Assembly (NCBI GenBank): GCA_028292305.1
Contig: JAQGMQ010000920.1
Span: 1-33,529, forward strand
Origin: Rhodoferax sp.
GTDB taxonomy: Bacteria > Pseudomonadota > Gammaproteobacteria > Burkholderiales > Burkholderiaceae_C
Direction: 5' to 3'
DNA: 33,529 nt
Shown: positions 1,439 through 29,330 of the stretch, piece after piece
How positions within the stretch are numbered: the stretch's first letter is position 1
How the letters are laid out: each line of letters starts with the position of its first letter
The notes under the pieces: model-generated
Told to the model about the DNA's origin: nothing
The model's database searches: none
The model's input: the letters and a program-made list of their open reading frames with translations, nothing else
Made by a program: the position numbers and the translations under genes

Positions 1439-1456
1439 CCCACCAAGGAGACTCTC

Positions 1457-1531
1457 ATGCGATCACTGCTCTTATTATTTCTGGGCATCCCAATTCCCAT
1501 CATCATCCTTATCGCGCTTTTCGTGCATTGA
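1457..1531 (+). CDS. 24-aa hydrophobic micro-protein MRSLLLLFLGIPIPIIILIALFVH
   Basis: ATG at 1457 with an ideally placed CAAGGAG RBS (1444-1450), TGA at 1529-1531, immediately followed by a rho-independent terminator. Below the ORF-track size cutoff. Confidence 0.7.
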   Translation: MRSLLLLFLGIPIPIIILIALFVH

Positions 1532-1535
1532 TAAC

Positions 1536-1560
1536 AAGGGAGCCTTCTGGCTCCCTTTTT
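1536..1560 (+). terminator. Rho-independent terminator
   Basis: AAGGGAGCC-TTCT-GGCTCCCTT followed by a T run: perfect 9-bp stem, 4-nt loop. Confidence 0.9.
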
Positions 1561-1667
1561 CATTCCGCCGGCCGCGCGTAGGAGCGAGCGCACGCCTACT
1601 GGGCTGTGGCGCCTATCGGTTTCGAAGAGACACCAGCCCATAGTCGTGTCACACATACAAGGCTCGC

Positions 1668-3125
1668 ATGTCCCACGACCTCATAGAACGACTCCCTACC
1701 ACCGCACCATCCTCCACCAAAAGCGCTTTGTCCGCAGACCTGCCTGAGCACGCATCCCTCCACAAGAGGCTCTTCGCGGGCATTCCTGCTTCCACCCTGC
1801 AAGCCGAGGCGGCCTCCTTTCTTCGGTCCCAAATTGATCTGCTGGATCCGGCCGGCTGCGATCTGCCCGAATCGCCTGAAGGACTCGAGCAGTGGATGGC
1901 CGACGGGGCCACGGGCGCGACCGACAAATACGCGGCCTACCTCGACGCCCGCAAGGCTGGCGCGCCGCGCCGCTTTTTTACCAACCGCGCCCACGCCCTG
2001 TATTTCCTGAGGGCCGTCGCGCCCACCAAGTTGGCCGATGGCTCATGGCTCTACGGCCTACTGCAGCACTGGCGCAATCCCAAGTTTTCCGATCTGATCC
2101 GCACTTACGTCGAGGAATTGGGCGAAGGCGCGTCCGACAAGAACCACGTGGTCCTCTACCGGCAATTGCTGGCGCGGCACGGCCTGGATCCCGTTGAGGA
2201 TCTGCCCGACGCTTTCTACACGCAGGGGGCGGTTCAACTGAGCCTCGCCTGCAACGCCGAGGAGTTCTTGCCGGAAGTAATCGGGTTCAACCTGGGCTAC
2301 GAGCAGTTGCCGCTGCACCTGCTCATCACGGCTTACGAGCTCAATGAGCTCGGCATCGATCCTTACTATTTCACGCTGCACGTGACGGTCGACAACGCCG
2401 ACACTGGTCATGCCAAACGCGCGGTGCAGGCGACGTTGGACAACCTTCCCCGCATCGGCGACCCCGCGGATTTCTGGCGCAGGGCGCGCGTCGGCTATCA
2501 GTTAAGCAACGCCGGCCTGGGCACGAACGACGTCATCGCCAATTTCGACATCGGCGCCGAGGTGGTTCGGATTTTCAAGCACAAGAGCGGCGCGGGACAA
2601 GGCGCCCATTCCGACTATTGCCGCGTCGCGGGACGCAGCGTGAATGACTGGCTGTCCGACCCAGAAAACATCCCCGCCTTCCTGGCGGCTTTGGAGGCGG
2701 CTGGCTGGATCAAGCGGGGAGCGCCGGCCGAGGAGAGCAGATTCTGGGGATTGCTTCTGGGCGACCGCGCGGAGATGTTCGGCGTGTTCAGCAGCTACGA
2801 GCTTCAGGTGATCCACGATTGGATTCGGGGTGACGCCAGCGCGGACGGCAAGCCCTTCACCGAGGAGCCGAGCGCGGATGGTCAGCCAAGGCGCCCGAGC
2901 TTTCGCGTGGCAGCCCGTCTCGCCGCAGCGCGGGGACAATCCCCTCTCGCCACCGAGCCTGCACACGACACGCTGGACAGCGATCTGCAGGCCCTGGCAG
3001 AGCAGCTGCCTGGATTGGACGAGGACGGGCAGGCCGCGATGCTCGTGCAAGCCATGGCGCCCTCACAGCACTGGACGCTGGCGGGGTTGAGGGCGACGCA
3101 GTTGTTCGTCGAGCGTTCGCGCTGA
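1668..3125 (+). CDS. Iron-containing redox enzyme family protein (heme-oxygenase-like diiron fold)
   Basis: 485-aa ORF; helical His/Glu/Asp-rich segment YEQLPLHLLITAYELNELGIDPYYFTLHVTVDNADTGHAKRAVQATLD typical of the family. Confidence 0.7.
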   Translation: MSHDLIERLPTTAPSSTKSALSADLPEHASLHKRLFAGIPASTLQAEAASFLRSQIDLLDPAGCDLPESPEGLEQWMADGATGATDKYAAYLDARKAGAPRRFFTNRAHALYFLRAVAPTKLADGSWLYGLLQHWRNPKFSDLIRTYVEELGEGASDKNHVVLYRQLLARHGLDPVEDLPDAFYTQGAVQLSLACNAEEFLPEVIGFNLGYEQLPLHLLITAYELNELGIDPYYFTLHVTVDNADTGHAKRAVQATLDNLPRIGDPADFWRRARVGYQLSNAGLGTNDVIANFDIGAEVVRIFKHKSGAGQGAHSDYCRVAGRSVNDWLSDPENIPAFLAALEAAGWIKRGAPAEESRFWGLLLGDRAEMFGVFSSYELQVIHDWIRGDASADGKPFTEEPSADGQPRRPSFRVAARLAAARGQSPLATEPAHDTLDSDLQALAEQLPGLDEDGQAAMLVQAMAPSQHWTLAGLRATQLFVERSR

Positions 3126-3172
3126 ATCCGAGGAAATCGTTGCGGCGCCCGGGCGCGCATAGCTCCCTCTCG

Positions 3173-3946
3173 CTAGTCTTTGAGCTCTATCCACGTCGGA
3201 GCATGATCACTCGGCTTCTCCAGGGCGCGCACGAACCTGTCCACCCCAGCGGACACCATCTTTTTGGAGACGGTCGGGCTCATGAGCAGATGGTCGATGC
3301 GCAAGCCCGCGTCGCGGTCAAAGTGATTTCTAAAATAATCCCAGAACGTGAAGATGGGCTTGTCTGGGGACTGTTTGTAGAGGGCGTCGGTCCAACCCTG
3401 CTTCAAAAGGCGCTGATAGGCTTCGCGGCTTCCGGGTTGAAGAAGTGCGTCCTTCTTCCAGGACATCGGCGAGTAAATGTCCGCATCGGTGGGGACCACG
3501 TTGTAATCCCCGGCCAACACGACGGGATGTTTTGATTTCAACAATGCTGCCGCATGGGCGTTGAAGCGCTCGAACCATTCGAGCTTGTAGTCGAATTTGG
3601 GACCTGGCTGGGGATTGCCATTCGGCAGATACAGGCAGCCGATCAACATTCCGTGCACAGCCGCTTCGAGGTAGCGGCTCTGCGTGGGGTCCGGGTCGTC
3701 GGGCAATCCCCTTCGAATTTCCAGCGGCTGCGAGCCCTTAGCCAGAATCGCCACGCCGTTCCAGGATTTCTGCCCGTGCACCAGCGCTTCATATCCAGCT
3801 TCCTCGACCGCCTCGCGCGGAAAGTCGGCGGTCTGGCATTTGAGTTCCTGCAGACATACGATGTCAGGCTGGGTCTCGGCGAGCCATGCCGTGAGGATTT
3901 TGATTCGGTTTCGAACGCCGTTGATGTTGAAGGTCGCGATGCGCAT
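3173..3946 (-). CDS. xthA: Exodeoxyribonuclease III
   Basis: 257 aa; MRIATFNINGVRNRI, DIVCLQELKCQ, LAGDYNVVPTDADIYSP, LRIDHLLMSP, SDHAPTWIEL motifs of the ExoIII/AP endonuclease family. Confidence 0.96.
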   Translation of the reverse strand: MRIATFNINGVRNRIKILTAWLAETQPDIVCLQELKCQTADFPREAVEEAGYEALVHGQKSWNGVAILAKGSQPLEIRRGLPDDPDPTQSRYLEAAVHGMLIGCLYLPNGNPQPGPKFDYKLEWFERFNAHAAALLKSKHPVVLAGDYNVVPTDADIYSPMSWKKDALLQPGSREAYQRLLKQGWTDALYKQSPDKPIFTFWDYFRNHFDRDAGLRIDHLLMSPTVSKKMVSAGVDRFVRALEKPSDHAPTWIELKD

Positions 3947-12274: not shown

Positions 12275-15200
12275 TTGCACGAACGGGTGAGTTATTTGAG
12301 TGTCCCCGTGCGTATTCGAGGAATCGTAGATTCCCTGGAAAAATCACTCAGAGCGGTAGTGGGTGGTTTCCTGATGGGCCGCCTGCGTAGATCGGAGGCA
12401 CAGTACAGGCTGCTTTTCGAAAGCAATCCTCAGATGATGTGGGTTTGCGAAAGCCAGACATTGGCTTTTCTGGAAGTCAATGAGGTGGCCGTTGTTCATC
12501 TGGGCTACAGCCTCACCGAGCTGCAAAAGATGCGACTGCCGTCCCTTTTGGATTGCTCAGCGCCAAGCTTTGTCTTCGAGCCAAACGCCGACACAGGCAT
12601 CGATACGGACGAAAGTCGAATTGATGCTTGCCCCGGCGTGGATCAAGTGGGGCATCACTGCGTGCTTCGCACAAGGCAAGGAAGCGCGTTGGACGTGGAA
12701 ATCCGTTTCAGCCGCATCCGCTTCAAAAACCGACCCGCGTTGATGATGCATGCACTCGACATTACCGAACGAGTTCGGGTCGGCCATGAGGTACGACGGC
12801 TCGACCGGGCGCAGCGGATGCTGAGTGCATGCAACGAAGCCGTCATCCGTGCTACGGACGAAGCGCAGCTTTTACGGCAAATCTGCGAGATAGCGGTTGA
12901 CATAGGTGGATACCTTCTGGTCTGGGTCGGTTTTGCGCAGGACGACGAACACAAAAGCATTTCGGTCGAAGCCGCGGCCGGAGAAAAATCGGCTCTGATG
13001 TTCCGTCAGCGCGGATCTTGGTCCGGCGATATTCCCGCCGGACAAAATGCCGCTGGCAGGGCGATCCGCACCGGGGAAATCGGGGTGATTGCCGACGTTC
13101 ACGACGACCCGCATTTCGAATTGTGGCGGTCGTTTGTGGATACCGTTGGCCACCGTGGGCTCATCGGCTTGCCACTGCGCGATGCCACGCGAACGTTCGG
13201 CGCTTTGACTCTCTATGCGCCGGACGCCTTGCACATCAGCGAACAGGAGTCGGTCCTTCTCGAGGAACTCGCCAACGACCTCGCTTTCGGCATCAATAAC
13301 CTGCGGTCGCTGAACCGCCAGCGTCGGCTCAGCGACGCAGTACTCAAGGTCGGCGCCGCGGTCTCGGCGCAGGTGGGCGACCAGTTCTTCAAACGCCTCG
13401 TCTCCAGCCTTGTGGATGCCCTGGAAGCGCAGGCAGGTCAGGTAGCGGTCCTGCTGCCTGGCGACCATCCCAAAGCAAGGTCGCTCTATGCGTCGGTGAA
13501 AGGAAGCGAAATTCCCGGCTTTGACTTTGATCCCCGAGAAGGTCCCTGCGGTGAATATCTTGGTCGCGACGCTTGGAGTGTCATTTGCACGCCGGGATAT
13601 GACTACCCGCAGGAAAGATTCTTTGCGCGCTTTCCGGCCGAGAGCATCGCAGTCAGACGTCTGGACAACGCCCGAGGCGAGCCCATCGGTTTCTTGCTGG
13701 TGGCTTTCGAAAACCAGCTGGGGGAGTCTGAATTCGTCGATGCCCTGCTGCGGATCTTCGCCGCGCGAGCGGCGTCGGAGTTGGAGAGATTGCAATCGGA
13801 CGCACGCCTGCGAATCCAGGCTTCGTTGTTGGACCAAGCGCAGGATGCCATTCTGGTCAGGGATCTCAACCACCACATCACCTATTGGAACCAAGGTTGC
13901 GAACGTCTTTACGGTTGGGAATCGCAGGAGGTTCTAGGGCGGTCGGTTCCAGCTTTGGTCTACAACGACCCGGCCGTATTTCATGCGAAAACAAACGAGG
14001 TGATCGCGCACGGGGCGTGGAGCGGCGAACTGATTGAACGGCGTAAAGATGGCGTGCAGATCATCGTGGAAGCCCGGTGGACCCTGCTGCGCGGTGACGA
14101 CGGGCAACCCGTCTCCATCCTGGGTATCAATACGGACATCACCCGCAGAAAAGAGGCGGAGGAAGCCGTACACAGGCTGGCATTCTTCGATGCCCTGACA
14201 GGGATGCCCAACCGTCAAATGTTCAACTTAGGCTTGCAACAGGCGGTTCGATCAGGCCACTTGTCCGGTCTGTGGGGCGCACTTTTGTACGTCAACATCG
14301 ACAAATTCAAGGCCGTGAACGAACAGCTGGGGCATGTCAAAGGAGACCTGCTCCTCCGGCTTGTTGCCGAGCGGATGACGGCCACGCTGGAGGGAAAAGA
14401 CACAGCCGCCCGCATCGGCGGCGACGAATTTCTGATATTGCTTGAACCGACGCACGCCGACCGAGAGGCTGCGCTGGGGTTCGCCAACGCGGTCGGCCAC
14501 AACATTCTGCGTAGTTTTGCCGTCCCCTTTGCGCTGGATGAATTTGAATACCTGGCCTCTGCATGCATCGGCATTGATGCTTTCCAGGGTTTGGAGACGG
14601 AACAAGGCGAACTCTTGAAGAGAGTTGACTTGGCCCTCTACCAGGCCAAGGCGGTGGGACGCGGGACGCTGCGTGTCTATGATCCGCTGCAGCAACTGCT
14701 TGTGGCGGAAAAAGCCACCCTTGAAGAGGAACTGCGCCAAGCGTTAGCCCTGAACCAACTGGCTCTGCACTACCAGCCACAAGTACACCGTGACGGGCGC
14801 CTGCTGGGTGCGGAAGCCTTACTGCGCTGGGTCCAGCCACGCCTTGGCAACGTGTCACCTGCGGTCTTCATCCCCGTGGCTGAGCAGTCCGGATTGATTC
14901 TTTCGATCGGGCAGTGGGTGATCCAGACGGCTTGCACTCAGCTCAAGACCTGGCAAAGCCGCCCGAGCACAAAGCAACTGCTCCTTTCTGTCAACGTAAG
15001 TGCTAGCCAGTTTCGCGATGACGGTTTTATCGACCAAGTCGCCTCAGCCATTCGTAACAGCGGCATCGATCCGGGAGGGTTGAAGCTTGAATTGACAGAA
15101 AGTCTCCTGGTTTACGACATGGAGGCTGTGATCACCAAGATGCACCTGCTCAAATCGCACGGCGTGGGACTTTCGCTCGACGATTTTGGAACCGGGTATT

Positions 15201-16768
15201 CCTCGCTCTCGTATTTAAAGAGAATGCCACTCGACCAGCTGAAGCTTGATCAGGCTTTTGTGCGCGATGTGATGACCGATCTGAACGATGCAGCGATTGC
15301 CGAGACCGTGATTGGACTGGGCCATAGTCTTGGCCTGATGGTCATTGCGGAAGGCGTCGAGCAGGCTGACCAACGTGCTTTTCTCTTTGAAAGCGGCTGC
15401 GATGGATACCAAGGCTACCTGCTCAGCCGCCCGTTACCGCTCGACCAGTTTGAATCATTTATGGCTGCCTACGGCGGTCGGACGCGTGCCATCAACGGAC
15501 CCGAGGCCTACGGCGTAAATCGGTCTCCACAACAAGAGCTCAGGGAACTGACAGAGATCATCGAACACACGCCAGACTATGTGTTTCAAACTGACGCGCT
15601 TGGCCGTGTGCAGCACCTGAATCCCTCAGCGAGGGCTGCGCTCGGGATACCGTTGCACGCACCAGTTCATGGTTTTAGCTTCCGTGATTTCTTTACCGCT
15701 GAGGCAGGGGAGACTCTTGACCGGGTCGTCATTCCCACCGTGAATACCACCGGATTTTGGATGGGCGAGACCGCTATTCTGGCCCAGGGTGAACGGCTAG
15801 TGCCAGTCAATCAAATGGTTATAGGACACCGCGATGCTGCCGGCCGCATCGTGCGATTTTCAGCCGTCATGCGGGATATTTCGCTCGATATCGAGTCTCG
15901 CCAGCGGCTGATGGAACAAACCGCAACGCTGCACTCAATGGCAGAGTCCATTCCCGCGATCGTGGCAGTAAACGGTCTTGACGAACGGTACCGTTTCGTT
16001 AACCGAGCATTCGAAGTCTGGTTCGGGAAGCCTCGGGAACTGATCGTTGGGCGCACCAGTCGGGACGTGCTTGGGGAAGAGGAGTACGAGCGCAGTCGAG
16101 CTTGGATTGAACAGGCGTTCGCCGGGGAGACCGTAAGTTTCGAGAAGCATTTCCCAGACCGCACTCCGCCTTTGCATATGGCAGTAAGCTTTATCCCTTT
16201 ACGACTGGATAATGGTCAGATCGATGGCTACGTGACCATGGCGCAAGATGTAACGCTACATCGTACGGAAGCCGTCCGACTGCACCAAATTTCTGAGCGC
16301 GATGCGCTTACGGGTCTTCTTAATCGGCGTGGTTTCGAGGCCTATTTAGACCGGGCGGTACAAGCGGGCAACGCGGGATCCCTGGCCTTGCTGTATGTCG
16401 ACCTGGACCACTTCAAGCCAGTCAACGACCAGCACGGCCATCCTGTTGGAGACGTTTTGCTGCGGGATTTTGCCAATCGACTGCGCAAAGTCGTGCGTCC
16501 GATGGACGGTGTGGCTAGGATGGGCGGGGATGAGTTTGCAGTGGTGCTCTATGGCGTGGCGTCCCTTGCTGACTGCGCACCTGTCGCGGAAAAGATCCTG
16601 GCCGTTGCCCGGCGACCTTTTCTGATAGCTCGCCTGCAGCTCACAATCAGTGCAAGTATTGGGGTGGCCTTCAACGCGAGTGACCAGGATGGTTGGGTCG
16701 GCATGGTCAGAAGGGCGGATGCCAAGTTGTACAGCGCCAAAGCCGCCGGCCGAGGTAGATGGGCTTAA
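12275..16768 (+). CDS. Large multidomain c-di-GMP protein: PAS-GAF-GAF-PAS-GGDEF-EAL-PAS-PAS-GGDEF (1497 aa)
   Basis: First GGDEF ARIGGDEFLILLE; EAL set EALLRW, ELTESLL, DDFGTGYSSLSYLKRMPLDQLKLD, AEGVE, QGYLLSRPL; second GGDEF VARMGGDEFAVVL with RPMD I-site. Track start is a TTG; a downstream GTG/ATG may be the true start. Confidence 0.92.
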   Translation: MHERVSYLSVPVRIRGIVDSLEKSLRAVVGGFLMGRLRRSEAQYRLLFESNPQMMWVCESQTLAFLEVNEVAVVHLGYSLTELQKMRLPSLLDCSAPSFVFEPNADTGIDTDESRIDACPGVDQVGHHCVLRTRQGSALDVEIRFSRIRFKNRPALMMHALDITERVRVGHEVRRLDRAQRMLSACNEAVIRATDEAQLLRQICEIAVDIGGYLLVWVGFAQDDEHKSISVEAAAGEKSALMFRQRGSWSGDIPAGQNAAGRAIRTGEIGVIADVHDDPHFELWRSFVDTVGHRGLIGLPLRDATRTFGALTLYAPDALHISEQESVLLEELANDLAFGINNLRSLNRQRRLSDAVLKVGAAVSAQVGDQFFKRLVSSLVDALEAQAGQVAVLLPGDHPKARSLYASVKGSEIPGFDFDPREGPCGEYLGRDAWSVICTPGYDYPQERFFARFPAESIAVRRLDNARGEPIGFLLVAFENQLGESEFVDALLRIFAARAASELERLQSDARLRIQASLLDQAQDAILVRDLNHHITYWNQGCERLYGWESQEVLGRSVPALVYNDPAVFHAKTNEVIAHGAWSGELIERRKDGVQIIVEARWTLLRGDDGQPVSILGINTDITRRKEAEEAVHRLAFFDALTGMPNRQMFNLGLQQAVRSGHLSGLWGALLYVNIDKFKAVNEQLGHVKGDLLLRLVAERMTATLEGKDTAARIGGDEFLILLEPTHADREAALGFANAVGHNILRSFAVPFALDEFEYLASACIGIDAFQGLETEQGELLKRVDLALYQAKAVGRGTLRVYDPLQQLLVAEKATLEEELRQALALNQLALHYQPQVHRDGRLLGAEALLRWVQPRLGNVSPAVFIPVAEQSGLILSIGQWVIQTACTQLKTWQSRPSTKQLLLSVNVSASQFRDDGFIDQVASAIRNSGIDPGGLKLELTESLLVYDMEAVITKMHLLKSHGVGLSLDDFGTGYSSLSYLKRMPLDQLKLDQAFVRDVMTDLNDAAIAETVIGLGHSLGLMVIAEGVEQADQRAFLFESGCDGYQGYLLSRPLPLDQFESFMAAYGGRTRAINGPEAYGVNRSPQQELRELTEIIEHTPDYVFQTDALGRVQHLNPSARAALGIPLHAPVHGFSFRDFFTAEAGETLDRVVIPTVNTTGFWMGETAILAQGERLVPVNQMVIGHRDAAGRIVRFSAVMRDISLDIESRQRLMEQTATLHSMAESIPAIVAVNGLDERYRFVNRAFEVWFGKPRELIVGRTSRDVLGEEEYERSRAWIEQAFAGETVSFEKHFPDRTPPLHMAVSFIPLRLDNGQIDGYVTMAQDVTLHRTEAVRLHQISERDALTGLLNRRGFEAYLDRAVQAGNAGSLALLYVDLDHFKPVNDQHGHPVGDVLLRDFANRLRKVVRPMDGVARMGGDEFAVVLYGVASLADCAPVAEKILAVARRPFLIARLQLTISASIGVAFNASDQDGWVGMVRRADAKLYSAKAAGRGRWA

Positions 16769-17629: not shown

Positions 17630-19822
17630 TTAGGCGTTCTGAAGCGCTAAAGCTGAGATGGTGTGGCCGAGCATTGTTCTTCTGATTTTCACGAAGCTCT
17701 CGAATTCCGCAGCCGGTACGGGTTTGCTGAAAAGAAATCCTTGCAGTTCATCGCATCCGCGCGTGCGCAGGAAATCAGATTGACCTACGGTTTCCACGCC
17801 TTCTGCGACCAAGTGCAGGCGGAGGGTTTTTGCCATCGAGATGATGGCCTCGGTGAGGCCGCGGTCTTCTGCGTCGGTTTCCAGATCCCGGATGAAAGAG
17901 CGGTCAATTTTGAGCGTGTCGATCGGGAACTGTTTCAGGGTCGCAAGGGATGAATATCCGGTTCCGAAGTCGTCGATGGCGATCCGAATACCCATGTCCT
18001 TCAGCGTGTGGAGTAAAACTCGGCCCCTTTCAACGTCGTGCATGATCATGCTTTCGGTGATCTCCAGTTCCAGCAGCCTAGGATCCATGCCGGTTTCAGA
18101 CAGGATAGCCAGTACGTCTTCCAGAAAATTTTCATCGCTAAACTGACGCGGTGACAGATTGACCGCGACAACCAAGCCGTCCAGGCCTGCCGTCTTCCAG
18201 GCCATTGTTTGCCTGCAGGCGGTGCGAAGTACCCATTTGCCGATTGGCACGATCAAGCCGGTTTCTTCAGCTACGGGGATGAACTGGGTTGGTGCGACCA
18301 TACCCAAGTCTGGGTGCTGCCAGCGCAGCAGCACCTCCATGCCGGCAGTCTCGCCAGAGTGAAAGTCTTTTTTGGGCTGGTAGTGCAACAGAAGCTCATC
18401 GCGCTCGACGGCGCGCCTGAGGCTTGATTCCAGCGCTAGCCGTTCGAAGGAATTGACGTTGCGTTCGGCTGAGTAGAAGGCTGAGCCGTTCTTGCCAGAT
18501 TCCTTGGCTTGGTACATCGCAATATCCGCGTTTTTCATGAGCGTTTGCTCATCCGTACCATCGTTCGGGAAACGGCTTATACCGACGCTGCAGGTCACGC
18601 GAAGCTCCTGGCCCGGGACCGAGAAAGGCCGCGAGATGGCGCCCAGGATTTTTCGGGCCACCGTTTCAGCGTGCGTGTCATCCTTGAGGTCCGGCATCAG
18701 CACCACAAATTCGTCCCCGCCCAGTCTTGCAACGGTATCGCTGGCCCTGAGCGTTTGGCGCAGCCGCAGGGCTACTTCCTTGAGCAGCAGATCACCGGCT
18801 TCATGGCCTAGGGTGTCGTTGACTTGCTTGAACCGATCGAGGTCGATGAAAAACACCGCAAAACGCCCTTCGTAGCGCTTGCCGTAGTTCAATGACTGGC
18901 TGAGCGCGACTCCAAACATCGCACGGTTTGGAAGGCTGGTCAGGTTATCGTGGTACGCCAGGTATTGAATCCGATCTGCGTCTTCTTTTTGGCGCTTCAT
19001 GCCGTCTTCCAACAGCACATTGGCTTGAGCCAGGTCAGCGACATGGTCAATCAGCGCCGCGCGGCCCCGACCCAGGTCCTCTGCCATTTTGTTAAACGCT
19101 GTGCCCAACCGTCCCAGTTCATTCTTGGTTTGCAGGTTGACGCGGCGGCCGTAGTTTTCGGCAGCAATAGCCGTTACCGCCGTTTGCAACTCTTCCAGAG
19201 GCCAGACGATAGAGCGCGTTGTGCGGATTGCAACGGTACAACCCAGCAAGACCATCACGGCCGCCACAAACCCGGTAACGTAGCTGCTGCGTTTGGCTTC
19301 CTGCATAAGCGCGTCGTAAAGGCCGGAGTACTCAAGCACGATGGCACCGACAGTCGGACTGCCATGCTCGGATGGGTTGTCCTGTAAGGGAACGACCACC
19401 TGTTTTGACGTCGCCCTGGGTTCTGATGGGTCCGGCCCGATGAAAACCCTTGCCGTTCCATCGAGCATGGTCATTTCGATGTCCGGATTTGTGTAGGTGG
19501 AGCCAACGGCCGCTCCATTAGTGTCGGCCATGACTACCCCGTGCCGATCGACGATGAGGATGTCGCGGTCGAACATCACGCCCATCTTGGCGATGTACTG
19601 CTGTAGCAGTGGAGCACCCGTTCCCGATAAGTCTCGGCCCGTGTGTGCCAAGGCGGTGGCCACGTGTTTGGCTTCTAGCACCGAGGCTCGCTCTGCCGCA
19701 TCGAACTGAAACTGGATAGCCGTACCAGCCACGGCAAGGACGGCGAAAACGACCGCGGCGAACGCACCGAGGAGCTTCCATCGAATGCTTCCTTGCTTCA
19801 GTTGCAGGAGGGACAAGTTCAT
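17630..19822 (-). CDS. Membrane-bound sensor GGDEF-EAL protein (periplasmic sensor, HAMP, GGDEF, EAL)
   Basis: N-terminal TM, sensor domain with DRDILIVDRHGVVMADTNG, second TM and HAMP-like segment, VARLGGDEFVVLM with RASD I-site, EVLLRW, DDFGTGYSSLATLKQFPIDTLKID. MNLSLL start preferred. Confidence 0.93.
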   Translation of the reverse strand: MNLSLLQLKQGSIRWKLLGAFAAVVFAVLAVAGTAIQFQFDAAERASVLEAKHVATALAHTGRDLSGTGAPLLQQYIAKMGVMFDRDILIVDRHGVVMADTNGAAVGSTYTNPDIEMTMLDGTARVFIGPDPSEPRATSKQVVVPLQDNPSEHGSPTVGAIVLEYSGLYDALMQEAKRSSYVTGFVAAVMVLLGCTVAIRTTRSIVWPLEELQTAVTAIAAENYGRRVNLQTKNELGRLGTAFNKMAEDLGRGRAALIDHVADLAQANVLLEDGMKRQKEDADRIQYLAYHDNLTSLPNRAMFGVALSQSLNYGKRYEGRFAVFFIDLDRFKQVNDTLGHEAGDLLLKEVALRLRQTLRASDTVARLGGDEFVVLMPDLKDDTHAETVARKILGAISRPFSVPGQELRVTCSVGISRFPNDGTDEQTLMKNADIAMYQAKESGKNGSAFYSAERNVNSFERLALESSLRRAVERDELLLHYQPKKDFHSGETAGMEVLLRWQHPDLGMVAPTQFIPVAEETGLIVPIGKWVLRTACRQTMAWKTAGLDGLVVAVNLSPRQFSDENFLEDVLAILSETGMDPRLLELEITESMIMHDVERGRVLLHTLKDMGIRIAIDDFGTGYSSLATLKQFPIDTLKIDRSFIRDLETDAEDRGLTEAIISMAKTLRLHLVAEGVETVGQSDFLRTRGCDELQGFLFSKPVPAAEFESFVKIRRTMLGHTISALALQNA

Positions 19823-20221
19823 AATTTTGACGTTAATTGGACCGCTCCAGTATCGAGTCCGGTGCTGTTTAAACGTGACTTGACTGTGTCGTCGGGGGAG
19901 CACCTGCGGCACTAATTGGCAAAACCTGAACAGTTGATGTGCATTCGGCGTTCGGGGGATGAGGCCTGCTGCGTCTTCACAAAGTTACTTTTTAGAACGG
20001 ACTCGCGTGGCCCACCAGAACGACATCCGAAACAAGCTGGTCGAGCCTTTGTTGCTGCATGACGCATGCTTGGCGCTGAAACCGGTAGTGGAGATGCGCC
20101 TTAGCGGACACTGGAAGAAACGGCATGTCTTGAAAGAAGGAAGGTCAGGCCAGAAGCGTGCAGGAGCGAAACGAGGCGGCTCCACACATGGCAAGCGCTC
20201 AAAAGCGTGAACCCGGTCGGT

Positions 20222-27337: not shown

Positions 27338-28465
27338 CTAGCCAGGGAAATGGGCGGTGAACTGGGTGCCCGATACCTCGTCCGAGCTGACCTCGACGGA
27401 TCCGCCGTGGGCTTTAGCGATCTCGCTCACGATGTAGAGGCCCAGGCCAACGCTGCGGCCGCCGTTGCTATGCCCGTGGCCCCGGACCATGGGCTCGAAG
27501 AGCGACGGCATCGCTTCGGCTGGGATCGGCGTTCCGAAGTTCAGCACCGACACCGAGAACGAGTCGGCGCGCGCTGTAGAGGTCACGATGACGGGCCGCG
27601 AAGCGTCGCCGTAGGCAACCGCGTTTGTGACGAGATTGACCACCAACTGGGCTAGCCGATCCACGTCGAACAGGCCGTGGCCCGATCCCTCCCTCACGTG
27701 TTGCAGATCGCGGCCGGGGCAAGCCGAGGTCAGCTCCTCGACCGAGTCCGCGACAGCCGAGTGCGGATTCAATCTTCTGCGCTCCACCGCCAGCCCTTTG
27801 CCAAGCCTGGCTCGCGTGAAGTCCAAAAGATCGGAGACCATGCGATTGGCCCTGCTGGCCGCCCGAGAGATCCTCTCCAACACTCGGAGTTGGTCGGCCG
27901 AGGGCGCACGCCGGCCCAACACCTGCGCGCTCATCAGGATGGTCGCGAGGGGGGTACGCAAGTCGTGGCTGACAATGGCCATCATCTGCTCGGCAAACAG
28001 CGCCCGGTCCTTGGCCTCTTCTTGAAGCCCGGTGGCTTCCTCAATGGCGGCCTCCAGCCGCTTGCGCGAGGCGACCAGCTCCTGTTCGAACTTGTCTCTG
28101 TCCCGGGCCACGAAGGCCGCCAAGTCATGGACAACCGCTCCCGCGCGCTCCCGGCGGACCGCGTTCATGATCATCGGCACGCGGCTCCCATCCTTGTGGA
28201 TCAACTCCAGCCGCACCTCCGAGACAGATCCCTGCATTTGCAGCAGCGGCGCCCAATGGGTTTGATGAAATATCTTCCCGCCCATGCTCAGCAGGTCCTG
28301 CACCTTGCGCTTTCCCACCAGCTCGTCGGCCGAATAGCCCAACCAGCCGCAAAGCGTGGCGTTCACGCGCATGAACGTGCCGTTCGTAGACGTGCGCGCC
28401 AGCGCGCACGGCGCGTCGTCAACGAGGTCGATCGTCTCGGGTGAAGGGGGAACCGCTTCGCTCAC
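27338..28465 (-). CDS. PAS domain sensor histidine kinase with RsbP-like PAS region
   Basis: PAS (DDAPCALARTSTNGTFMRVNATLCGWLGYSADELVGK), H-box MMAIVSHDLRTPLATIL, N-box LVVNLVTNAVAYGD, G-box GLGLYIVSEIAKAHGGSVEV. Confidence 0.93.
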   Translation of the reverse strand: MSEAVPPSPETIDLVDDAPCALARTSTNGTFMRVNATLCGWLGYSADELVGKRKVQDLLSMGGKIFHQTHWAPLLQMQGSVSEVRLELIHKDGSRVPMIMNAVRRERAGAVVHDLAAFVARDRDKFEQELVASRKRLEAAIEEATGLQEEAKDRALFAEQMMAIVSHDLRTPLATILMSAQVLGRRAPSADQLRVLERISRAASRANRMVSDLLDFTRARLGKGLAVERRRLNPHSAVADSVEELTSACPGRDLQHVREGSGHGLFDVDRLAQLVVNLVTNAVAYGDASRPVIVTSTARADSFSVSVLNFGTPIPAEAMPSLFEPMVRGHGHSNGGRSVGLGLYIVSEIAKAHGGSVEVSSDEVSGTQFTAHFPG

Positions 28466-28469
28466 TAGG

Positions 28470-29330
28470 TCAGAAGCCGCGCCTGGCCAGGAAATCGTTG
28501 ATGGCCTGCGCGCACGCGCTTGGCGCGCTCAGGTGTGGGCAGTGGCCCACGTTGTCGATGATTTTTAGCTCCGCAGCCGGCATGGAGCGGAGCATGTATT
28601 CGCCTACAGCCATCGGGGCGATGAAGTCGTCATCGCATTGAAGGATCAACGTGGGCGTCGCGAGTTTGGGCAGGTCGGCACGATGGTCAGACAGGAAGGT
28701 GGCTCGCGCGAATTGCTTGGCGACGTCAGGGTCGGTTCGGCAAAAGCTGTTCGTAAGCTCCTGGCCCAACTCGGGCTGGCCCGGCGCGCCCATGATGGCT
28801 GGCGCCATGTTGCTCGACCATCCCAGGTAGTTGCTCTCCAAAGTCTCCAGCAATGATTCGATATCCGCCCGCTCAAAGCCGCCGTGGTAGTCGCCGTCGT
28901 TGATGAAGCACGGGGAGGGGCCCACCATGATTTGCGCGGCGAACGTTCCGGGCGACTTCAAGTCGGCCAGCAAGCCGATCATGGCGCTCACGGAATGGCC
29001 GACGAAGATCGAGGGGCCCTCGCTGAATTCGCCGACGATTTCCAGGACGTCGTCGGCGTAGCCGGAGAGTGAGCCGTATTTCGCTGGATCGTAGGCGGAA
29101 AGGTCCGACGCGCCACTCCCCACCAGGTCGAACGCCACCGTCCGGAAGCGCTCGGCATAGCTTGGCTGCATCAGCCGCCACATGTTCTGGTCGCACCCAA
29201 ACCCGTGGGCGAAGAAAATGGTCGCGGCGCCCGCGCCAGCTACATGGACGTTGTTGCGATGCCGAACAGTCACAAAGCGGTCTCCAAAGGGGTGCCCCCG
29301 CGAAGGAGGGGGCCGCGGCGATTGTCGCAT
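28470..29330 (-). CDS. RsbQ-like alpha/beta hydrolase (start uncertain; GTG or a later start possible)
   Basis: HVAGAGAATIFFAHGFGCDQNMWRLMQPSY, FDLVGSGASDLSAYDPAKYGSLSGYADDVLEI, FVGHSVSAMIGLLADL, MVGPSPCFINDGDYHGGFE, SNYLGWS, DPDVAKQFARATFLSDHRADL, LILQCDDDFIAP, NVGHCPHLSAP match RsbQ throughout. Confidence 0.9.
   Translation of the reverse strand: MRQSPRPPPSRGHPFGDRFVTVRHRNNVHVAGAGAATIFFAHGFGCDQNMWRLMQPSYAERFRTVAFDLVGSGASDLSAYDPAKYGSLSGYADDVLEIVGEFSEGPSIFVGHSVSAMIGLLADLKSPGTFAAQIMVGPSPCFINDGDYHGGFERADIESLLETLESNYLGWSSNMAPAIMGAPGQPELGQELTNSFCRTDPDVAKQFARATFLSDHRADLPKLATPTLILQCDDDFIAPMAVGEYMLRSMPAAELKIIDNVGHCPHLSAPSACAQAINDFLARRGF

What the first reader, a model, noticed from the sequence alone, without database searches (positions are those of the whole stretch)
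27338..29330. RsbQ-like hydrolase coupled to a PAS histidine kinase: an RsbQ-RsbP-type sensor with a swapped output
Seen: the alpha/beta hydrolase stops 4 bp before the histidine kinase ATG on the same strand. The hydrolase carries RsbQ-type motifs along its length (GFGCDQNMW, VGHSVSAMIG, VGPSPCFIND, SDHRADL, ILQCDDDFIAP). The kinase N-terminus (DAPC...F..LL...SEVRLELIHKDGSRVPMIMNAVRRERAG...RDKFEQELVASRKRL) resembles, from memory, the PAS and linker of Bacillus RsbP, where the output is a PP2C phosphatase. Established: RsbQ activates RsbP through its PAS domain in energy stress, and RsbQ is related to the plant D14/KAI2 receptors. Inference: here the same hydrolase/PAS front end drives a two-component kinase, so a small hydrophobic molecule made or bound by the hydrolase could control phosphorelay. 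No response regulator is adjacent in the window.
Basis: partly seen in the sequence, partly recalled or inferred. Interest (0 to 1): 0.82.

Follow-up and report, generated by a model that had tools for sequence, protein, structure and literature searches.

The report
Known RsbQ-PAS sensor with kinase output
Two coupled genes encode a hydrolase-type small-molecule sensor and a histidine kinase that it very probably switches on; this pairing is real and conserved, but was described and named (the RsbQ-PAS module) in 2011, so this is a new example of a known system.

Summary
On the minus strand an RsbQ-type alpha/beta hydrolase (28470-29330; 48.7% identical to B. subtilis RsbQ, triad S113/D235/H263 kept) ends 4 bp before a PAS-HisKA-HATPase kinase (27338-28465; start GTG, not ATG). 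The PAS really is RsbP-like. It fits the published consensus at all nine residues that define RsbP-PAS. It scores 104 bits against a profile of two Gram-positive RsbQ-linked PAS domains, while the next best of about 30 sampled PAS loci of the same genome scores 29. The pairing is conserved: 88 of 93 RsbQ-like loci examined have an RsbP-type PAS immediately downstream, including 20 of 22 in an even sample of Pseudomonadota. The "swapped output" reading is therefore right but not new. Nadezhdin, Brody and Price (2011, PMC3183031) described this bipartite module with phosphatase, histidine kinase and diguanylate cyclase outputs, and placed the kinase version in Gram-negative bacteria. What I add: natural single-chain fusions (hydrolase-PAS-kinase in three Polaromonas; hydrolase-PAS-GGDEF in another proteobacterium), relatives carrying their own receiver domain, and Chryseobacterium loci with a CheY-like regulator just upstream. 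Signal, ligand and target here remain unknown.

The parts
28470..29330 (-). RsbQ-type alpha/beta hydrolase ORF (catalytic triad S113, D235, H263); probable true start GTG at 29273 with GGAGA 7 nt upstream
27338..28465 (-). PAS-histidine kinase (375 aa, GTG start, 4 bp after the hydrolase stop)
28112..28423 (-). RsbP-type PAS domain (residues about 15-118), carrying C20, A23, L59, K64, F66, H67, H70, P73, E83, P97
27911..28105 (-). single continuous predicted helix (residues about 121-185) from the end of the PAS into the kinase dimerisation domain; candidate signalling coiled coil
27806..27991 (-). HisKA domain, phospho-acceptor His167 in SHDLRTP
27344..27667 (-). HATPase_c domain with N box (NLVTNAVAYG) and G2 box (GLGLYIV)

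Best explanation
This is an RsbQ-PAS bipartite sensory module with a histidine kinase output. The hydrolase binds, and perhaps turns over, an unknown small hydrophobic molecule and contacts the F-alpha helix of the kinase's N-terminal PAS domain. The resulting change passes through one continuous helix into the HisKA dimerisation domain and sets autophosphorylation at His167. The phosphate then goes to a response regulator encoded elsewhere in the genome. Shown here: membership, gene coupling, conservation, an intact triad and an intact kinase core. Shown by others in B. subtilis: PAS-hydrolase contact and the need for the triad. Inferred: that the same contact controls this kinase, and that phosphorelay is the output.
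For: Hydrolase: best match RsbQ 1wom E=1.5e-87, 48.7% identity, triad kept. PAS: all nine RsbP-PAS class residues fit the published 75% consensus and there is no DIT motif. It scores 104.5 bits with a profile of two Gram-positive RsbQ-linked PAS domains, against at most 29 bits for other sampled own-genome PAS. Pairing: 88 of 93 loci, including 20 of 22 in an even phylum sample. In-frame fusions: hydrolase-PAS-HK in three Polaromonas assemblies and hydrolase-PAS-GGDEF in a fourth genome. The residue equivalent to RsbP E72, whose Ala mutant is null, is the only invariant column in 48 homologues. Model: PAS, then one helix 120-184 into the HisKA domain. Receiver domains: hybrid kinases in Caballeronia, Salinimonas and Mesorhizobium, and small CheY-like proteins 5' of the hydrolase in five Chryseobacterium-group loci. 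Literature.
Against: No experiment exists for any histidine kinase member that I could find: in the 2011 paper only B. subtilis has a known target. No cognate response regulator was found in the window or consistently beside the closest relatives. L031 (Pontibacter), L040, L076 (Arthrobacter), L127 and L129 have an RsbQ-like gene without the PAS partner, so the hydrolase may also act alone.
Confidence: 0.88

Rival explanations
1. The hydrolase is a metabolic esterase or lactonase that happens to share an operon with a kinase sensing its substrate or product; there is no direct contact between the two proteins.
For: Catalytic triad intact; Pfam and NCBIfam see only generic hydrolase families.
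Against: The partner PAS is a specific subclass that accompanies RsbQ across Proteobacteria, Bacteroidota, Actinomycetota and Bacillota with different output domains; gene fusions; PAS-RsbQ contact shown in B. subtilis.
Confidence: 0.07
2. Relic or broken pair: the genes persist but the kinase is no longer controlled by the hydrolase.
For: Patchy occurrence: half of the genomes held for its genus lack the gene, and its genus relatives carry a 45-47% identical version instead.
Against: Both reading frames are intact, with complete active-site motifs in both proteins and class-defining PAS residues kept; hydrolase 65-74% identical to its closest relatives.
Confidence: 0.04

Closest known systems
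RsbQ-PAS module with histidine kinase output (Nadezhdin, Brody and Price 2011, PMC3183031)
   Same: Same gene order, same PAS subclass at the N-terminus, linker helix, HisKA-HATPase output, Gram-negative host.
   Different: Nothing essential; Variovorax and Polaromonas are not named in its main text, so this clade is an added set of members. Single-chain fusions were not found in the text searched.
B. subtilis RsbQ-RsbP
   Same: Hydrolase 48.7% identical with the same triad; PAS 29% identical over 127 aa with all class residues.
   Different: Output is a histidine kinase instead of a PPM phosphatase; no sigma-B partner-switching context seen next to the pair.
Plant KAI2 / D14 receptors
   Same: Same alpha/beta hydrolase superfamily branch; PDB hits at about E=1e-45 to 1e-55.
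   Different: More distant than RsbQ; plant partners are F-box and SMXL proteins (general knowledge), not PAS kinases; no ligand evidence here.

Membership tests
RsbQ-PAS bipartite sensing module (histidine kinase class) | RsbQ homologue encoded immediately upstream, same strand | tested here: met
   4-bp gap; RsbQ is the best PDB match, E=1.5e-87
[quoted passage not shown]
   residues about 15-118
RsbQ-PAS bipartite sensing module (histidine kinase class) | Nine class residues (C10, L13, L48, Q53, F55, C56, Y59, E72, P86 of RsbP) within the published consensus | tested here: met
   C20, A23, L59, K64, F66, H67, H70, E83, P97. The B. subtilis RsbP sequence was recalled and checked against all nine published positions; consensus
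RsbQ-PAS bipartite sensing module (histidine kinase class) | PAS closer to RsbQ-linked PAS than to generic PAS | tested here: met
   104.5 bits versus at most 29.3 for other sampled own-genome PAS
RsbQ-PAS bipartite sensing module (histidine kinase class) | No DIT motif at the PAS end | tested here: met
   window PAS ends FVARDRDKFEQ
RsbQ-PAS bipartite sensing module (histidine kinase class) | Helical or coiled-coil linker to output | tested here: met
   continuous helix 120-184 in the model, pLDDT mostly 78-95; coiled-coil propensity itself not computed
RsbQ-PAS bipartite sensing module (histidine kinase class) | Direct hydrolase-PAS contact needed for signalling | not testable with these tools
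   shown only in B. subtilis
RsbQ | Ser-Asp-His triad S96/D219/H247 | tested here: met
   S113/D235/H263
RsbP (PP2C phosphatase) | C-terminal PPM/SpoIIE domain | tested here: not met
   HisKA and HATPase_c instead

The most novel reading that the evidence does not exclude
The kinase branch is a bacterial small-molecule (possibly butenolide-like) receptor system working like KAI2/D14: ligand occupancy of the hydrolase, not catalysis, switches the bound PAS, and the natural hydrolase-PAS-kinase fusions are a one-chain form of that receptor.
Probability: 0.12. Interest if true: 0.75.

Novelty: new member of a known kind. Interest (0 to 1): 0.25.

Why it matters
The signal sensed by RsbQ-PAS modules was unknown in 2011 and I found no later identification. 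The kinase members, especially the single-chain Polaromonas fusions and the hybrid kinases with their own receiver domain, would allow the sensor-to-output step to be reconstituted with one purified protein and simple autophosphorylation assays. That could settle whether the hydrolase delivers a product to the PAS or acts as the receptor itself.

Tried and rejected
No Bacillus genome could be reached: 'of' accepts genome handles only, so RsbP comparisons used Streptomyces (PPM output) and Paenibacillus (GGDEF output) partners fetched from plasmids, plus a recalled RsbP checked against published positions. A mixed alignment of fused, hydrolase-only and kinase-only rows (A3) aligned badly and was not used for folding. 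Looking for a conserved neighbour in the closest clade gave no shared gene and no consistent response regulator. NCBIfam gave no specific name for either protein. The promoter scan gave one weak site at 29348-29321, about what chance gives.

Full report
What is there. On the minus strand an alpha/beta hydrolase (29330-28470) is followed after 4 bp by a PAS-HisKA-HATPase histidine kinase (28465-27338, GTG start). The upstream DUF1003 gene is divergent, and a hemerythrin-like gene lies downstream on the same strand after about 217 bp, so the two genes look like a two-gene unit. The likely hydrolase start is GTG at 29273, with GGAGA 7 nt upstream. That fits the point where homology begins, at residue 17-25 in most relatives.

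The hydrolase. Its best solved relative is B. subtilis RsbQ (1wom, E=1.5e-87), then Olei00960 (3qvm), then a hydrolase structure (7ukb) and the plant KAI2 and D14 receptors. Identity to RsbQ is 48.7% over 263 aligned residues. Ser113, Asp235 and His263 align with the RsbQ triad, allowing for the two-residue offset of the crystal chain.

The PAS domain. Nadezhdin, Brody and Price (PMC3183031) defined the RsbP-PAS class by nine residues and by the lack of a DIT motif. In the window these positions are C20, A23, L59, K64, F66, H67, H70, E83 and P97, all within the published consensus, and the PAS ends without DIT. I searched it against the window proteins and 30 loci holding the best generic PAS_9 matches of the same genome (of 75 found). 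The window PAS scored 104.5 bits and the next best 29.3; with a recalled B. subtilis RsbP PAS the figures were 54.1 and 14.2.

Conservation. Of 93 loci encoding an RsbQ-like protein, 88 have an RsbP-type PAS immediately downstream. One of these, L021, has about 3.3 kb inserted within the hydrolase gene, and some distant members have weak PAS scores of 34-46 bits. In an even sample of 399 Pseudomonadota genomes, 20 (the window's own included) had a strong RsbQ-like gene, and 20 of the 22 loci other than the window have the PAS. Outputs by motif among those 20: 11 kinase, 5 GGDEF, 4 not classified. Among 250 genomes of the window's family, 37 have the gene. Of the 29 loci retrieved, 28 have the PAS, with 18 kinase and 8 GGDEF outputs. 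The window's own genus mostly carries a 45-47% identical version or none, whereas the closest relatives (65-74%) are in Variovorax, Acidovorax, Ramlibacter, Polaromonas, Caballeronia and metagenomic deltaproteobacteria. This suggests horizontal transfer (inference).

Fusions and phosphorelay clues. In three Polaromonas assemblies (L011, L013, L017) hydrolase and kinase form a single open frame of about 650 codons (Pfam domains of L011). In L130, a genome of the same class as the window, hydrolase, PAS and GGDEF are in one frame. I found no mention of such fusions in the parts of the 2011 paper searched. Relatives in Caballeronia, Salinimonas and Mesorhizobium are hybrid kinases with a receiver domain. 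In five Chryseobacterium-group loci a 120-138 aa CheY-like protein lies about 100-125 bp upstream of the hydrolase on the same strand. These make phosphorelay the likely output. In the window no regulator is adjacent and the partner is unknown.

Mechanism. In B. subtilis the RsbP PAS is necessary and sufficient for contact with RsbQ, F55A breaks the contact, and the RsbQ triad is needed for signalling. The equivalents here are F66 and the intact triad. The AlphaFold model of the kinase (mean pLDDT 89, pTM 0.59) shows a PAS fold running into one helix, 120-184, that enters the HisKA domain. The most likely working is therefore: hydrolase with bound or processed ligand contacts the PAS F-alpha helix, the helix is reoriented, His167 phosphorylation changes, and a distant regulator is phosphorylated. 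These steps are inference for this protein pair.

Verdict. It is a new member of a known kind, with a modest addition in the single-chain fusions and the neighbouring regulators.

Noticed in passing
L011:3992-5950, L013:3992-5947, L017:3992-5950: Hydrolase, PAS and histidine kinase in one uninterrupted frame in three Polaromonas assemblies.
   Followed up: partly
L130, reverse strand, about 1450-3204: Separate fusion of RsbQ-like hydrolase, PAS and GGDEF in one frame.
   Followed up: partly
L022, L027, L028, L030, L032, about 100-560 bp upstream of the hydrolase: Single-domain CheY-like response regulator upstream of the RsbQ-PAS-kinase pair in Chryseobacterium-group genomes; candidate cognate regulator.
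   Followed up: partly
L021:4699-8033: Variovorax paradoxus MEDvA23: the hydrolase homologue is split by about 3.3 kb containing a LysR-like gene; insertion or assembly join not resolved.
   Followed up: no
L031, L040, L076, L127, L129: RsbQ-like genes without a downstream RsbP-type PAS.
   Followed up: no
window:23199-25208, 12275-16768, 17630-19912: Three cyclic-di-GMP proteins in one window: dCache-HAMP-PAS-GGDEF, GAF-PAS-GGDEF-EAL (multi-domain), HAMP-GGDEF-EAL.
   Followed up: partly
window:30498-33527 (-): Large protein of repeated DUF11 domains ending in an IPTL-CTERM sorting signal, cut by the window edge.
   Followed up: no
window:26639-27121 (-): Hemerythrin-domain protein downstream of the kinase, with a sub-cut-off match to the PA2171 ribosome-binding persister family (91 of 190 bits).
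   Followed up: no
window:4267-6858 (-): Multi-domain LigD-type DNA ligase (3'-phosphoesterase, ligase, primase-polymerase).
   Followed up: no
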